Part shown: positions 18,410 through 24,450 of the stretch, in pieces
How the letters are laid out: every line of letters starts with the position of its first letter
Numbering within the stretch: the stretch's first letter is position 1
DNA from: Desulfoarculaceae bacterium
Lineage (GTDB): Bacteria > Desulfobacterota > Desulfobulbia > Desulfobulbales > Desulfocapsaceae
Length of the DNA stretch: 35,242 nucleotides
NCBI GenBank assembly: GCA_019429465.1
Contig: JAHYIV010000032.1
Coordinates: forward strand, 1 to 35,242
Direction: 5' to 3'
The notes under the pieces: model-generated
What the model was told of the DNA's origin: nothing
The model's database searches: none
The model's input: the letters and a program-made list of their open reading frames with translations, nothing else
Made by a program: the position numbers and the translations under genes

Positions 18410-19051
18410 ATGACCGCTGAAAAAATGGTAAAAAAAGAGACCATGCTGATAGCCATCGCCATAAGTTTACTGCTGGGATTTCTAACAGGGGCCATTTTTA
18501 CAACCTACAAGTTAAGTTCATCAAAAACGAGTGGCGGACAATCCGCTACCGCCCAAAAACAACAAGGCACTACATTGAACAATGAGCAAGCCAGGACCAT
18601 CGCGACCCTCGAGGCGGAGGTTGAGACAGCTCCTGCCAATGGAGAGGCATGGACCAGGCTCGGCAATCTTTACTACGACACGAATCAGGTCAAAAAAGCA
18701 ATTAATGCCTATACCCGTGCGCTTGACATCTTACCGGCAAATGCCGACATCCTGACTGACCTCGGCGTCATGTACCGACTCGACAAGCAACCGGACAAGT
18801 CCATAGAGTCTTTTGATAAAGCGATCCAAGCCAATCCCCAACACGAAACAGCACGCCTGAACAAGGGCGTCGTCCTGCTCTATGATCTTGGCCGGACGGC
18901 GGATGCCCTCCAGACCTGGCAGAAACTGCTTGCTATCAACCCCAATGCGGTAACCGCCAACGGCCAGTCGGTGCGTGATCTTATGGCAGATGTCACCAAA
19001 GAGTTTGGGACATCCCCAGAAAAGCAGGCACCCGAAACCACAACAAAGTGA
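18410..19051 (+). CDS. Membrane-anchored TPR protein
   Basis: A 213-residue protein with one N-terminal membrane helix (about residues 12-33, MLIAIAISLLLGFLTGAIF) and at least three tetratricopeptide repeats (about residues 80-185) such as GEAWTRLGNLYYDTNQVKKAINAYTRAL. The layout resembles NrfG/CcmI-like assembly proteins, but no haem-maturation gene is nearby, so the function is open. The ATG at 18410 was chosen because GAGGGAG precedes it by five bases and it follows a plausible promoter; a longer frame lacks both. The next gene, serine acetyltransferase, starts five bases after its stop, so it is likely co-expressed with cysteine synthesis. Confidence 0.8.
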   Translation: MTAEKMVKKETMLIAIAISLLLGFLTGAIFTTYKLSSSKTSGGQSATAQKQQGTTLNNEQARTIATLEAEVETAPANGEAWTRLGNLYYDTNQVKKAINAYTRALDILPANADILTDLGVMYRLDKQPDKSIESFDKAIQANPQHETARLNKGVVLLYDLGRTADALQTWQKLLAINPNAVTANGQSVRDLMADVTKEFGTSPEKQAPETTTK

Positions 19052-19056
19052 TCCCC

Positions 19057-20067
19057 ATGTCAGCACAACAAAACAAACAAAACCCCATCATGACCCCCCT
19101 TGAGCCCTGTGACCATGTGTCTGACAACAATGTCTGCCTGTATTCCCAGGTCCCGGCAGTAGTCAAAAAACTGGTCGCCTCCTGGCAGAGCAAAAACTGC
19201 TTTGATCACATCGGACCTGTGTCAATTCCTTCACACCAGACCATCATTGATATCACCTATCTGGTCAGACAGCTCCTCTTTCCAGGCTATTTTACCCAGG
19301 CCAAACTGTACGCCTCCAATCTGGAATATTATATTGGCCAGAAATCCACAGAGCTCTACGAGCAGCTCACCGAGCAGATCACTATGGCCATCCGCCATGA
19401 CTGCCGACGAATCAATCTGCCCTGCACCAACTGCGAGGCACGAGGCCACCATCTGGCCCTGGCCTTCATCAAAACCCTGCCCCAGATCACCGCCACCCTG
19501 GCCGAAGACATCCGGGCCACACTGGACGGTGACCCGGCCACCAACAGTGCCGACGAGGTGATCTTCAGCTATCCAGGCCTGCTGGCAACCTCCATCTATC
19601 GCATGGCCCACGAGTTATTTCTCCTCAAGGTGCCGATCATCCCGCGGATTATGACCGAGCACGCCCACAGCCTCACCGGCATTGACATCCATCCAGGCGC
19701 CACCATCGGCCCTGGCCTCTTTATCGATCACGGCACCGGAGTGGTGATCGGCGAGACCAGCATCATCGGTGAAAACGTCCGACTCTATCAGGGGGTGACA
19801 CTGGGCGCACTGTCGCTGCCCCGCGATGCCGGGATCAAACTCCAGCAGGTTAAGCGCCATCCCACCATTGAAGATGAAGTGATCATCTATGCCAACGCCA
19901 TTATCCTGGGTGGCGAAACCGTGATCGGCAGACGCTCGATCATCGGCGGTAATATCTGGCTCACCGAAAGCGTGCCGCCGGACACCAGGGTGATGCTCAA
20001 ACGACCAGAGCTGATCTTTTCTGAAAAGAAGACGGCAGCAGCCAAAAAGGAGAAGAAGATGTCATGA
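19057..20067 (+). CDS. cysE: Serine O-acetyltransferase (CysE/EpsC type)
   Basis: A 336-residue enzyme making O-acetylserine from serine and acetyl-CoA, the first step of cysteine synthesis. The N-terminal 200 residues are helical; the C-terminal part is a left-handed beta-helix with hexapeptide repeats: [34 protein letters not shown]. The His/Asp catalytic pair is expected in HPGA and DHGTG. Unusual points are a Cys-rich patch [10 protein letters not shown] at about residue 123 and a Lys-rich tail that lacks the usual CysE C-terminal peptide which docks into CysK; the protein matches the longer EpsC-like group. A GTG at 19048 overlapping the previous stop is an alternative start. It overlaps cysK by four bases (ATGA). 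Confidence 0.92.
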
Positions 20068-20987
20068 CCAGTATGACGCTCATAGCCACCATAGGCAACA
20101 CTCCCCTACTCACCCTCTCGCGTATCACCGAAGGATGCCGGGCTACCATCCTGGCCAAGCAGGAGTCAAGAAACCCCATGGGCAGCCTCAAGGACCGCAT
20201 CGCCGCTGCCATGATCGAGACCGGGATCCTTGCAGGACAGATCAAGAACGACACCACTATTATCGAACCGACCAGCGGCAATACCGGCCTCGGCCTGGCC
20301 TTTATCTGCGCGGCCAGAGGGATGCGCCTGATTCTGACCATGCCCGAGAGCATGTCCATGGAACGCCGCATTCTGCTCAAACATCTGGGGGCCGAGCTTG
20401 TTCTCACCCCGGCCGCGGCTGGGATGCGAGGGGCTATTGAGGCCGCCAGTAAGCTGGCCCAAGAGAACAAGAACAGTTTCATGCCCAACCAGTTTTCCAA
20501 TCCGGCCAACCCCGCCATCCACCGGACAACAACCGCTGAAGAGATCTGGTCGGCAAGTAGCGGCAAAGTCGATATTTTTGTCGCAGGGATAGGCACCGGC
20601 GGGACGATTACCGGCGTGGGCGAGGTGTTAAAGAGCAGGAATTCGCAGGTCGAGATCGTGGGAGTCGAGCCGGCAGATTCACCGGTACTCTCAGGGGGTA
20701 CGGCCGGTCCCCATAAAATTCAGGGGATAGGTGCCGGCTTTGTCCCTGACATCCTCAATACCGCCATCCTTGACGCCATCATCACCGTGTCAAATCAGGA
20801 CGCAATAAGTATGACCAGACGCCTAGGTGCCGAAGAAGGGATTCTCTGCGGCATCTCTTCAGGGGCCGCAGTCTGGGCCGCCCTGCAACTGGCGGCAAGA
20901 GATGAGAATCAGGGCAAGACCATTGTCACCATCCTCCCCGACACCGGAGAGCGCTACCTGAGCACCGAATTGATGACCGGAGCATGA
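20064..20987 (+). CDS. cysK: Cysteine synthase (O-acetylserine sulfhydrylase)
   Basis: A 307-residue fold-type II PLP enzyme turning O-acetylserine and sulfide into cysteine. The PLP lysine is Lys43 in NPMGSLKDR; the substrate loop is [13 protein letters not shown] at about residues 71-83; the phosphate cup is [14 protein letters not shown]; and [10 protein letters not shown] is near the end. It overlaps cysE by four bases, so the two steps are translationally coupled. Whether it is CysK- or CysM-like (sulfide or thiosulfate) is not certain. It converges with hgcB. Confidence 0.94.
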
Positions 20988-21018: not shown

Positions 21019-21312
21019 TCAGCATCCGCATCCTGAAGGTTTTTTTCCGGTAACCTTGGCAAGCCAACTGTTGAGAATGTAGCGGGCACAGCCGCAGCCG
21101 TCATCTGGGTTGACGAAGATAGCCCCGACAGGGCAGTTCATGGCACAGGCCCCGCATTCCATGCAGGCATCATAATCAACGATGGACGCCTTTTTTTCAA
21201 TACACTTGAAGATGCGATGCGGACAGACTACCTCGCACATCCCGCAACCGATACAGACAGCCTTGTCCAGTCTGAGAATTGGTGCACCATCTATGTATCT
21301 GAACTCTTTCAA
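21019..21312 (-). CDS. hgcB: HgcB, ferredoxin for mercury methylation
   Basis: A 97-residue dicluster ferredoxin expected to reduce the corrinoid of HgcA during methylation of Hg(II). From the TTG start, CX2CX2CX3CP motifs sit at C20/23/26/30 and C50/53/56/60, a further cysteine at C73 (plus C75), and the tail ends SGCGC with C95 and C97. From memory, the characterised HgcB has the same plan: two clusters, Cys73, and a C-terminal cysteine pair at 94-95. The start is not obvious. An ATG at 21375 would add 21 residues encoded mostly by the inserted element 21337-21490; the TTG at 21312, giving MKEFRYIDG, fits family length and numbering. Its ribosome site is weak. It converges with cysK. Confidence 0.9.
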   Translation of the reverse strand: MKEFRYIDGAPILRLDKAVCIGCGMCEVVCPHRIFKCIEKKASIVDYDACMECGACAMNCPVGAIFVNPDDGCGCARYILNSWLAKVTGKKPSGCGC

Positions 21313-21336
21313 GGCCTTGTCTCTTAAAGAAAAAAA

Positions 21337-21490
21337 GTAACTATCCAGCTTAATGCCGGGAAAATTCCAAAACACATGTCACGTAACTATTCAGCAGTGC
21401 CTCATATGCGAGAAAGAGGCCTGCGAAGTGTACTGATTCGTACATGAGCAGACCGATGACGAAGCAGATGAGGTGCTGCTGGATAGTTAC
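21337..21490. mobile_element. 154-bp MITE-like insertion between hgcA and hgcB
   Basis: Perfect 13-bp terminal inverted repeats (GTAACTATCCAGC at 21337-21349, GCTGGATAGTTAC at 21478-21490) are flanked by a perfect 9-bp direct repeat, AGAAAAAAA at 21328-21336 and 21491-21499, the mark of transposition. Inside, a 46-base arm precedes a 108-bp near-palindrome (21383-21490) with 23-bp arms. There is no transposase, so it would have moved in trans. The hgcA stop codon lies in its terminal repeat. A second 154-bp copy is at 24532-24685. Confidence 0.9.
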
Positions 21491-22677
21491 AGAAAAAAAG
21501 GACCAGCCAGCCAGCAGGACAGGCCAAGCAGGGCAGTGATGAGCTGTATGGCCAGCCCTTTGCGCATTTCTATTTTCACTCCGGAAAGTGAGGTGTACGG
21601 GGTCGAACCGGTGAAGTTCATGGCCAGATAGGAGCTGATGCTCATTGCCCACAGGAACATGCCGGTCACGGCCGTCCAGCCGACAAAGGGCAAAAACCGC
21701 AGAATAGTGAATATCCCGACCGGAATTCCGAAGAGCAGCCCCTTGAACCAGAACTGCCTGCCGGGTATCCAGGGCAGCAGCAGCGGGACCAGAACCGTCC
21801 CAGCCAGAACGCCGGCAATCGTCACCAGACCTATCGTTCCACCTCTGTGCAATGCCCGGTCCAGCGAATAGATGTCAGGGCCGAAACCGGATAACAGCAT
21901 CAGGCCGGCCAGGGTGAGAATAAGCGGTTTTAACAGTAAAAACAGTTCCAACGGGATCAGGACTGCGCGTTCCTTCAGCTTAAAGGTAGCGCTACGCATG
22001 GCCTCGTCTGCTGCCTGACCGCTCTCCAGAAATCGTTTGATATCCCTGGCCCTGATCGGGCCGAATGTCCCTTTGAAGCCACAGGCGTTTTTCAGCTTCA
22101 GGGCAGAGACTCCAGGGGCGCCATATTGCGGCAGGATGAGTTCGCGGTGGTTGACCACGTCCATAAGTTTTGCCCGCTGGACCTGATAGGCTATTTCCTC
22201 AGTCGAGAATGTGCCCTTCCCGGCAGCACACCAGACGTTAATGCCCCTGGTATCCACCACCAGTATCCACACATCCACACCACCCAGTTCCCGGCGCAGG
22301 GCATCGAAGGTCAGTTTGTAATTGGCGGTCACAAAAACAGGCGAATTGCCGTCTGGCCTGCCGACACAGTACAATCCGGGTGTTATCGTGTACTGGTCAC
22401 GCTGAATACCGATTCTCGCTCCGATCGTCCCCCAGTGATCTGACCAGCTCAGGATGGCAGCGACCTGGGGCACCGGGCCTGCCGGAGAAGCTATAAAACC
22501 GCTGACAAAAGAGGCGATGGTGTACCCAGCCTGTTCATGCACCCCGGACCGGGGTTCCGTTTCCGGGCCTCAGCAGACCCCGGCATCGATTTCCGGCGGC
22601 GGGGCCAAGGGCATCGAACCGGAGGAGGAATCTACCTTTTTCGGCAAACTGGAAAGGGGTTGGAATGATTGAGTCAT
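21487..22677 (-). CDS. hgcA: HgcA, corrinoid methyltransferase for Hg methylation, with UGA codon 36
   Basis: A 396-residue protein (counting the UGA) that transfers a methyl group from a corrinoid to Hg(II), with HgcB as reductant. The hallmark motif NVWCAAGK is at about residues 147-154; Cys150 would be the lower cobalt ligand. Residues about 45-240 are the corrinoid domain (PGLYCVG, VTANYKLTFDALRREL, VDTRGINVWC); five membrane helices follow from about 255 to the end, as in the family. The start ATG at 22677 lies 23 bases after hemH. Codon 36 is an in-frame UGA in the context Cys-UGA-Gly, with a SECIS-like hairpin behind it. A GTG at 22542 would avoid the UGA and give 351 residues, close to the length of the best-known HgcA, but it has no ribosome site and lies in the hairpin stem. 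The stop codon is supplied by the inserted 154-bp element. HgcA is certain; selenocysteine is inferred. Confidence 0.9.
22541..22572 (-). promoter_or_regulatory. Putative bacterial SECIS element behind UGA codon 36 of hgcA
   Basis: On the minus strand the UGA (22572-22570) is followed by a hairpin ACCCCGGTCCGGGGT (22555-22541) with a 5-6 bp GC stem. Its loop contains GGUC at +23 to +26 counted from the U of UGA. The E. coli fdhF SECIS has GGUC in its loop at +22 to +25. The bulged U of fdhF is not seen (A17 here). Confidence 0.6.
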
Positions 22678-22700: not shown

Positions 22701-23600
22701 TTATCCCGCTATCCTGGCCGCCAGAAACTCGACAAAGAGATCACTGTCATTCTGCACCTGACAGACCCGGTAATCGAGCAGGCCGAGGATCCGGGCTATC
22801 TCCTTATATTCAATGGCCAGCTCCAGGTCGGTCTCTGAATTATCGATGGTAAACGAGAGGGGATAGACAATCACCTTCTCGCCGGCCAATCCCTTGAGGG
22901 TTGTGTCGAGAGATGGTTCCAGCCAGCGCATGGGACCGACCTTGGACTGATAGGCCAGATGAAAACCCTTGAAATCGATCCCGGCCTTCGCCAACAAGGT
23001 CTTTAAGATGGCCACATGCTCATTGATCTGTTGTTCATAAGGGTCATGGGCGGCAATCTTCTGCGGCAGACCATGGGCGGAAAAGACCAGATGGTAACTT
23101 CTGTCCTGATACTGCTCGCGGATCCGTTCAATAATCGAGGCGTTAAACAGGGGATCATCAAAATAAGGACCGACCTCCCTGACCTCCGGCCGCTGGCCAT
23201 GACGCTTCAGCGCGCGATAGACATCTTCAAAACTAGATTTGGTGGTGGTCGAAGAGTAATGGGGATAGAGCGGGACGAGAATCAACTGGTCAAACTTCCT
23301 GTCAGCAAGGAGATCCGCGGCCAGGGGATGAGTATAGCGCATGACCGGAAAAACCTCCTCCCCGGTGCTCTGCCGCAGTTTCTCCACCAGCCTATCGGTA
23401 TATTCATAGATCTTGCTGCCACCAATCAGCTCGTATTTTTTCCATATTTTCTTATAGCGCAGGGTTGAAATCAGCGGCGCCAAAAGATAGCGCATCGGCG
23501 AGCGAATAATTGCCTTGTCACTGAACATATTAAACAGGAAAGATCTGAGCTCCTGTTCCGACCGCGCCCCGCCCATATTCAGCAGCAATATTCCTTTCAT
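22701..23600 (-). CDS. hemH: Ferrochelatase (HemH family)
   Basis: A 299-residue class II chelatase inserting Fe(II) into a porphyrin. Family landmarks are LLLNMGGARSEQEL at the N-terminus, PLYPHYSSTTTKSSFEDV, the catalytic-His segment FSAHGLPQKIAAHDPYEQQ, and YPLSFTIDNSETDLELAIEYKE with the conserved Glu. The start ATG at 23600 is preceded by GAGAGG and avoids overlap with the upstream transporter gene. It is slightly short for the family. It lies 34 bases after the ZIP gene and 23 bases before hgcA, so all three look co-transcribed. Whether it makes protohaem or works on coproporphyrin is not visible. Confidence 0.92.
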   Translation of the reverse strand: MKGILLLNMGGARSEQELRSFLFNMFSDKAIIRSPMRYLLAPLISTLRYKKIWKKYELIGGSKIYEYTDRLVEKLRQSTGEEVFPVMRYTHPLAADLLADRKFDQLILVPLYPHYSSTTTKSSFEDVYRALKRHGQRPEVREVGPYFDDPLFNASIIERIREQYQDRSYHLVFSAHGLPQKIAAHDPYEQQINEHVAILKTLLAKAGIDFKGFHLAYQSKVGPMRWLEPSLDTTLKGLAGEKVIVYPLSFTIDNSETDLELAIEYKEIARILGLLDYRVCQVQNDSDLFVEFLAARIAG

Positions 23601-23634
23601 ATTCGTATCCTCTCTCATCTGCCTTCTGATCTGT

Positions 23635-24450
23635 TTACCCCAGGGCCACATCGAGTACCATCATTACCGTAAAACCTGCCATGGTGGCCATGGTGACCAG
23701 ATCAATATTAGCCTCAATGCGCTGAGAAGTCGGTATCAGCTCTTCTACCACCACAAAGATCATGGCCCCGGCGGCAAAACAGAGGGCATACGGCAGAACC
23801 GACTGCATCTGCATGACGAAATAAGCCCCAAACACAGCGGCTACCGGCTCAACCATACCAGACGCCTGGCCCAGCAGAAAACTCTTCCTCCGACTCACCC
23901 CCTCTCTTCTCAAGGGCATGGATACCGCCGTTCCTTCTGGAAAATTCTGCAGCCCAATGCCTATGGCCAGGGCCACCGCTGCCCCAATGGTGGCGGCGGG
24001 AAGACCGGCCGCCACTGCGCCGAAGGCCACCCCCACCGCCAGTCCCTCCGGAATATTATGCAGGGTAATAGCCAGGACCAGCAGGGTGCTTCGCTGCCAG
24101 GAGGTCTTGACCCCCTCGCTTTTGTTTACCGCCATACCCGGATGCAGATGGGGAAGCACGGCGTCGGCCAGACGCATGAAAATGCCGCCGGCCAGGAATC
24201 CGATCGCGGCAGTCAGCCAGGGAACAAACCCCATCTGCCTGGCCATCTCGATACCTGGTGCCAGCAGTGACCAGAAACTGGCGGCAATCATGACCCCGGC
24301 TGCAAATCCGAGCATGGCATCCATAAAGCGCTGATTGACCGTCTTGGTGAAAAAGACCAGAGAGGCCCCGGCCGCAGTCACCCCCCAGGTAAAAAGGGTG
24401 GCCAGAAACGCCTGCATGACCGGATCGAACTGCTGTATAAAAGTGATCAT
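23635..24450 (-). CDS. ZIP family metal transporter
   Basis: A 271-residue inner-membrane transporter with about eight helices, related to ZupT/GufA. The metal-binding motifs are in helices IV and [13 protein letters not shown] and [17 protein letters not shown] proteins move Zn(II), Fe(II), Mn(II) or similar ions into the cytoplasm. GGGGAG six bases before the ATG supports the start. It is the first gene of the run ZIP-hemH-hgcA-hgcB; its leader is bounded 81 bases upstream by a 154-bp MITE-like copy. A role in supplying iron for HemH or in divalent-metal (including mercury) uptake is possible but only inferred from position. Confidence 0.92.

What the first reader, a model, noticed from the sequence alone, without database searches (positions are those of the whole stretch)
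22541..22677. HgcA may be a selenoprotein: in-frame UGA with a SECIS-like hairpin
Upstream of the obvious hgcA frame, 45 codons run back to an ATG 23 bases after hemH, interrupted only by UGA at codon 36 (Cys-UGA-Gly). A GC-rich hairpin follows with GGUC in its loop at +23 to +26, one base off the E. coli fdhF SECIS position. The alternative GTG start has no ribosome site, lies in the hairpin stem and would leave a 158-base gap in an otherwise tight operon. Selenocysteine beside cysteine near the N-terminus of HgcA would be a new redox feature of mercury methylation. Against it: the GTG version has a length close to the best-known HgcA, and the bulged U of fdhF is missing.
Basis: partly seen in the sequence, partly recalled or inferred. 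Interest (0 to 1): 0.9.

Follow-up and report, generated by a model that had tools for sequence, protein, structure and literature searches.

The report
Selenocysteine in mercury-methylating protein HgcA
In this bacterium the gene for HgcA, a protein predicted to help make methylmercury, carries an in-frame UGA codon that is likely read as selenocysteine; selenocysteine-type HgcA has already been proposed in print, so this is a well-supported further example and not a new kind of thing.

Summary
hgcA lies on the minus strand; its frame runs back through Cys-UGA-Gly (UGA at 22570-22572) to an ATG at 22677. Of 139 hgcA loci from the same order (this one included), the homologous place holds Cys-UGA in 90 (UGA in 90 of 90, never UAA or UAG), Cys-Cys in 27, and no readable pair in 22. 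The UGA forms share a hairpin with GG at +20/+21 after the UGA that 200 of 200 synonymous shuffles fail to match; the Cys forms lack it. The genome has selA, selB, tRNA-Sec and a selD that has an in-frame UGA and GG-loop hairpin at the same spacing. The rival GTG start is Glu in 9 of 11 genus members. UGA is almost surely read as selenocysteine, though no protein evidence exists here. It is not new: Cys-Sec HgcA is in Table 1 of PMC13188914, citing Haft and Gwadz 2023. Added here: an order-wide census in which Sec is the majority form, conservation of the insertion signal, and an inferred, untested role of the pair as a flexible mercury ligand.

The parts
21487..22677 (-). hgcA with its N-terminal tail, ATG to stop, 396 residues with Sec36 (the GTG-start version has 351)
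   Evidence: NF040863 HgcA 423 bits, cut-off 275; frame read
22570..22572 (-). UGA, predicted Sec codon 36, directly after Cys35 (22573-22575)
   Evidence: Cys-UGA in 90 and Cys-Cys in 27 of 139 loci of the order
22541..22555 (-). Predicted SECIS hairpin: stem 22551-22555 / 22541-22545, loop GGUCC 22546-22550
22540..22542 (-). GTG, the alternative start that a gene caller would take; lies at the 3' arm of the hairpin
   Evidence: Glu in 9 of 11 genus members
21019..21375 (-). hgcB, two-cluster ferredoxin partner; Cys form (GCGC), UGA stop
   Evidence: NF040864 97.5 bits, just under its cut-off of 99; two CxxCxxCxxxC[PA] motifs, tail and stop codon
22701..23651 (-). hemH (ferrochelatase), gene upstream of hgcA
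   Evidence: TIGR00109 227.8 bits, cut-off 124.6

Best explanation
This hgcA gene is predicted to encode a selenoprotein: the in-frame UGA at codon 36 is likely read as selenocysteine with the help of a predicted hairpin that ends 29 bases after it, which would give a Cys-Sec pair near the N-terminus of the mercury-methylating corrinoid protein HgcA. Shown by sequence: the frame, the UGA, the hairpin's conservation, the Cys-Cys homologues and the sel genes. [quoted passage not shown] Inferred and untested: the pair sits on a flexible tail before the corrinoid-binding domain and serves as a soft-metal ligand that takes up Hg(II) or hands over methylmercury, as is proposed for the C-terminal Cys pair of HgcB. 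The confidence given is for Sec decoding; for the mercury-ligand role it is about 0.45.
For: Stop at this place is TGA in 90 of 90 loci and Cys codons stand there in 27 more of 139; 23 of 80 loci of another collection, partly the same genomes, show the same, TGA in 23 of 23, four from named isolates. Hairpin: G at +20 in 85 and at +21 in 84 of 86 distinct Sec forms against 1 and 8 of 27 Cys forms; stem 5.37 pairs against 3.19 +/- 0.11 in synonymous shuffles, 0 of 200 as high; Cys forms 2.52. Changes on both sides of the stem, e.g. +18/+27 paired in 75 of 86 against 42.5 +/- 3.5 shuffled, 0 of 300. Published SECIS constraints met by the window, 51 of 90 Sec forms and 1 of 27 Cys forms. selA, selB, selD, tRNA-Sec over cut-off; selD has its own UGA and a GG-loop hairpin at the same spacing. 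Part before the UGA evolves as protein: pN/pS 0.59, shifted frames 0.88 and 1.73. Synonymous change is low just after the UGA, pS 0.22 against 0.39 and 0.45 further on. GTG start absent in 9 of 11 genus members.
Against: No protein evidence. No clear ribosome site at the ATG. Energy of the 48 bases after the UGA does not separate Sec from Cys forms (p 0.35 for z, 0.94 for energy). Local hairpin energy beats synonymous shuffles in Cys forms too (0 of 200 as low). 39 of 90 Sec forms miss the strict test. Several stem positions pair no more than shuffles do, being invariant or outside the stem. selA was not found in 10 of 89 Sec-form genomes, two of them single contigs, and is present in 26 of 27 Cys-form genomes, so it does not discriminate. 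Against an essential role of the pair: by its published numbering the purified ND132 enzyme would start after it.
Confidence: 0.95

Rival explanations
1. The UGA is an ordinary stop of a leader and HgcA starts at GTG 22542 (351 residues).
For: GTG-start ORF is open and the NF040863 profile begins only at residue 24 of it; ND132 HgcA, as numbered in print, also starts after the pair.
Against: The codon is Glu in 9 of 11 genus members; it has no ribosome site; the part before the UGA aligns and is constrained as protein; Cys-Cys stands there in 27 of 139 loci.
Confidence: 0.03
2. UGA is read through by another route (reassigned code, or near-cognate tRNA giving Trp, Cys or Arg).
For: No residue has been measured.
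Against: UGA ends the neighbouring hgcB, so the codon is not reassigned; the conserved hairpin, the full Sec machinery and the Cys counterparts fit Sec.
Confidence: 0.015
3. Sequencing error or decaying gene.
For: The assembly is a draft of 72 contigs.
Against: Same codon in 90 loci, 89 genomes, and in isolates; the rest of the frame is intact.
Confidence: 0.005
4. Given Sec decoding, the Cys-Sec pair is a redox switch or disulfide/selenylsulfide link (for example with HgcB cysteines) and not a mercury ligand.
For: Cys-Sec pairs are redox-active in other proteins (recalled); HgcB partners of 44 of 76 Sec forms have an extra Cys.
Against: The extra Cys of HgcB arose once on the tree, too few independent pairs to test; 10 of 27 Cys-form tails carry further Cys-Cys pairs, more like a metal-binding tail.
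Confidence: 0.3

Closest known systems
Sec-type HgcA, motif CU (NF040863; Haft and Gwadz 2023, as listed in Table 1 of PMC13188914)
   Same: Same protein family, same Cys-Sec pair; one predicted Sec
   Different: Nothing that I could test; the paper itself is not held, so the position in their sequences was not compared. The gene here is a further member
HgcA of Pseudodesulfovibrio mercurii ND132 (PMC11588087, PMC7305189)
   Same: Corrinoid-binding domain, invariant cap-helix Cys (Cys93 there, Cys150 here), membrane domain
   Different: By its published numbering it begins about 22 residues after the Sec position; whether its DNA has an unannotated tail was not checked
Sec-type HgcB, motif GVGU (NF040864; PMC13188914)
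   Same: Predicted Sec in the partner protein of the same pathway
   Different: The window's HgcB has Cys there (GCGC); the Sec form was seen in L198 beside a Cys-Cys HgcA
SECIS of E. coli fdhF (recalled, not run)
   Same: GGUC in the apical loop, one base nearer the UGA there
   Different: No bulged U here; shorter stem

Membership tests
HgcA (NF040863) | Profile score over the curated cut-off | tested here: met
   423 bits, cut-off 275
HgcA (NF040863) | Cap-helix Cys in NVWCAAGK (motif recalled) and membrane domain | tested here: met
   Cys150, invariant in 40 rows; long helices 241-262, 272-303, 309-332, 334-358, 367-395 in the model
HgcA (NF040863) | hgcB next to it | tested here: met
   Downstream on the same strand; NF040864 97.5 bits is just under its cut-off of 99, both cluster motifs present
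HgcA (NF040863) | Methylates mercury | not testable with these tools
   Needs assay
CU-type HgcA selenoprotein | In-frame UGA after Cys with Cys in place of UGA in homologues | tested here: met
   90 Cys-UGA and 27 Cys-Cys of 139
CU-type HgcA selenoprotein | Downstream hairpin within the published bacterial SECIS constraints (loop 3-9, stem 4-16 bp, G in first two loop bases, spacing 16-37, MFE at most -7.5) | tested here: met
   -8.6 with G20-C24 counted as a pair; -7.4 without (constraints)
CU-type HgcA selenoprotein | Sec machinery in the genome | tested here: met
   selA, selB, selD, tRNA-Sec over cut-offs
CU-type HgcA selenoprotein | Selenium in the protein | not testable with these tools
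   Needs 75Se or mass spectrometry

The most novel reading that the evidence does not exclude
In the order of this bacterium selenocysteine is the rule in HgcA, and the N-terminal Cys-Sec pair is the site by which HgcA itself takes mercury, so that selenium supply gates methylmercury formation; Cys-form lineages make up for the weaker ligand with extra Cys-Cys pairs in the tail.
Probability: 0.2. Interest if true: 0.8.

Novelty: new member of a known kind. Interest (0 to 1): 0.4.

Why it matters
Selenium and mercury bind each other strongly (general knowledge), and a methylating enzyme that itself carries selenium would tie the two element cycles together at one residue. The kind is already in print, but the GTG start and the NCBIfam profile both begin after the pair, so the tail is easily lost from databases and constructs. 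In the census here the Sec form is the majority of loci with a pair (90 of 117), and cultured strains have it, which makes the role testable.

Tried and rejected
Whole-stretch folding: energies of the 48 bases after the UGA do not separate Sec from Cys forms; only stem and loop at the fixed place do. Rfam: no SECIS match. Link between Sec-type HgcA and the extra Cys in HgcB: 44 of 76 Sec-form and 0 of 24 Cys-form loci with a typed HgcB, but the extra Cys arose once on the tree and independent pairs were too few; rejected as evidence. Extra Cys-Cys pairs in the tail: 10 of 27 Cys forms, 1 of 90 Sec forms, not corrected for kinship, start codons guessed; a lead only. selA as discriminator: 79 of 89 Sec-form and 26 of 27 Cys-form genomes; it does not discriminate. 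Structure: AlphaFold2 leaves residues 1-22 under pLDDT 50 and block 31-40 at 62, so it says nothing firm about the pair. By sequence, at E 0.01 or less, only 4 distinct corrinoid/iron-sulfur protein sequences match in the PDB, no HgcA. In alignment A1 the invariance of residues 35 and 36 is by my selection of rows. PMC2398784, cited by the review for this family, holds none of three terms searched in its main text. A pattern search for the selD site failed; the translation gave it.

Rows dropped: of the matches I used 139 loci (30 that came with the search, 109). Not fetched: three better matches that start beyond residue 20 of the query (G069, G086:C95, G180), and matches weaker than 2.4e-36; the printed list was itself cut. 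Of 29 pattern matches to Cys-Cys, L226 and L243 were dropped because the pair is not at the homologous place, leaving 27. The 22 without a pair: L183 and L244 reach a contig edge, L171 looks broken, and most of the rest are a distinct HgcA subgroup (18 of the 22, L244 among them, have an HgcB of type GEGC). L166 was left out of A1 because of a further TGA inside the gene. The middle's rows was cut from the output; its totals were printed.

Full report
What is there. The window is contig C61 of a 2.84-Mb genome in 72 contigs, 94.79% complete. On the minus strand it holds hemH (22701-23651), hgcA and hgcB (21019-21375). The obvious hgcA frame opens at GTG 22542, 351 residues. Upstream it stays open to an ATG at 22677 except for a TGA at 22570-22572, in the context Cys-UGA-Gly. 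The ATG is 23 bases after the hemH stop; after the TGA comes a perfect 5-bp stem at +15 to +19 / +25 to +29 with loop GGUCC.

Homologues. A search of 257 genomes of the same order with the GTG protein gave a match in 225, weak corrinoid-protein matches included. I read the upstream frame in 139 HgcA loci, the window's own among them. At the homologous place 90 have Cys-UGA, 27 Cys-Cys, 22 no readable pair. The stop is TGA in 90 of 90. Flanks align: for example PC-U-GPKPEPRSG.HERPGY in Sec forms and PCCGPKPGPPSSP.EKPGY in Cys forms. In 11 genus members the tail aligns from the start Met to the UGA and its frame is open in 11 of 11. Of 80 loci of another collection, partly the same genomes, 23 have Cys-UGA-Gly, TGA in 23 of 23, four from named isolates. 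This removes sequencing error and decay.

The insertion signal. Among 86 distinct Sec-form sequences G stands at +20 in 85 and at +21 in 84; among 27 Cys forms in 1 and 8. The stem around that loop averages 5.37 uninterrupted Watson-Crick pairs; synonymous shuffles give 3.19 +/- 0.11, none of 200 as high; Cys forms have 2.52 (shuffles 2.14 +/- 0.19, 7 of 200 as high). Stem positions change on both sides: +18/+27 is C-G in some lineages and A-U in others, paired in 75 of 86 in one fixed register against 42.5 +/- 3.5 with partners shuffled, 0 of 300 as high. These shuffles ignore kinship, the stem sits in slightly different registers in different lineages, and several positions are invariant or show no excess. 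Against the bacterial SECIS constraints read in passages of PMC13188914, the window passes (-8.6 with G20-C24 as a pair; -7.4 for five pairs alone, just short of -7.5), and so do 51 of 90 Sec forms and 1 of 27 Cys forms; of all 1390 TGA trinucleotides of the window, both strands, 45 pass and 6 pass at spacing 17-21. What does not help: fold energy of 48 bases does not separate Sec from Cys forms; local energy beats synonymous shuffles in Cys forms too; 39 of 90 Sec forms miss the test; Rfam has no match. A side reading: the Pro-Arg-Ser/Ala-Gly of Sec forms is largely the coding shadow of stem and loop (CCC CGG UCC GGG in the window), where Cys forms have Pro-Pro-Ser-Ser.

Machinery. The genome has selA (623.7 bits), selB (387.7), selD (373.9) and tRNA-Sec (69.1), each over its cut-off; ARAGORN reads the last as tRNA-SeC(tca). 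selD has its own UGA at KAAG-UGA-AAKLG, followed by a hairpin with G at +20 and +21 and the same G20-C24 closing pair as in hgcA. Across the order selA was found in 79 of 89 Sec-form and 26 of 27 Cys-form genomes: capacity, but no discrimination. Of the ten Sec-form genomes without selA, seven have selB over the cut-off.

Translation before the UGA. In 11 genus members pN/pS is 0.59 in the true frame, 0.88 and 1.73 in the shifted frames; pS is 0.22 in the 15 codons after the UGA against 0.39 and 0.45 further on, as expected if the RNA is constrained there. The GTG codon is Glu in 9 of the 11. Neither start has a clear ribosome site.

History. On a FastTree tree of 187 HgcA bodies (pair left out) the Sec label needs 4 changes against 61.5 with labels shuffled. 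The Sec form is thus old in this order and mostly inherited; gain and loss cannot be told apart. Loci further off show UGA at other places of the tail with hairpins of 5-7 bp and a G in the loop (L094, L114, L122, L126); two of the four, L094 (-7.0) and L126 (-7.1), miss the energy cut.

How it would work. Decoding by SelB, Sec-tRNA and the hairpin is established biology. The role of the pair is inference. It lies 15 residues before the invariant Gly-Tyr and 33 before the start of the NF040863 profile match, in a part that AlphaFold2 leaves at low confidence (block 31-40, pLDDT 62). A flexible vicinal thiol-selenol is a good soft-metal ligand; PMC7305189 (passages) proposes Hg transfer for the C-terminal Cys pair of HgcB. 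I think capture or hand-over of Hg(II) or methylmercury most likely, a redox role less likely. Against an essential role: Cys93 of ND132 HgcA (PMC11588087, passages) should correspond to Cys150 here, so by its numbering that enzyme starts about 22 residues after the Sec position, and it was purified and its cobalamin methylated by SAM.

What is known. Full-text searches for HgcA with selenocysteine found 3 papers, with selenoprotein 4. Table 1 of PMC13188914 (passages) lists 'Mercury methylation corrinoid protein HgcA', NF040863, motif CU, one Sec, and HgcB, NF040864, motif GVGU, citing among others Haft and Gwadz 2023, which is not held. [quoted passage not shown] In these searches and two more (listings only) I saw no report of selenium measured in HgcA; they cover open-licence papers only.

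Verdict. A well-supported predicted selenoprotein gene, a further member of a known kind.

Noticed in passing
G127 (hgcA L164) and G128 (hgcA L142): Two single-contig genomes (97% complete) with UGA-form hgcA, selB and tRNA-Sec over cut-off, but no selA at E 0.001 and no archaeal-type SepSecS, while genus mates G126 and G129 have selA. An assembly gap or another way to make Sec-tRNA?
   Followed up: partly
L198 (G157): HgcB with an in-frame UGA at the GVG-Cys place, beside a Cys-Cys HgcA; in 24 Cys-form loci with a readable HgcB this is the one case, in 77 Sec-form loci none was seen.
   Followed up: partly
L094 (SAR324), L114 (Desulfuromonas), L122, L126: UGA at other places of the HgcA tail (Ser-UGA-Cys in L094; a further Cys-UGA 31 residues before the matched part in L114; Thr-UGA-Gly in L122), each followed by a hairpin with a G in the first two loop bases.
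   Followed up: partly
G000:C28:47175-48116 (L014): SelD of the window's genome is itself a predicted selenoprotein with a hairpin like that of hgcA.
   Followed up: yes
L171 (G216): HgcA frame looks broken near its N-terminus although the HgcB beside it is readable.
   Followed up: no
window 19048-20987 + and 23635-24450 -: Hexapeptide-repeat transferase and PALP-family enzyme (looks like a cysteine-making pair) downstream of hgcB on the other strand, and a ZIP-family metal transporter upstream of hemH.
   Followed up: no
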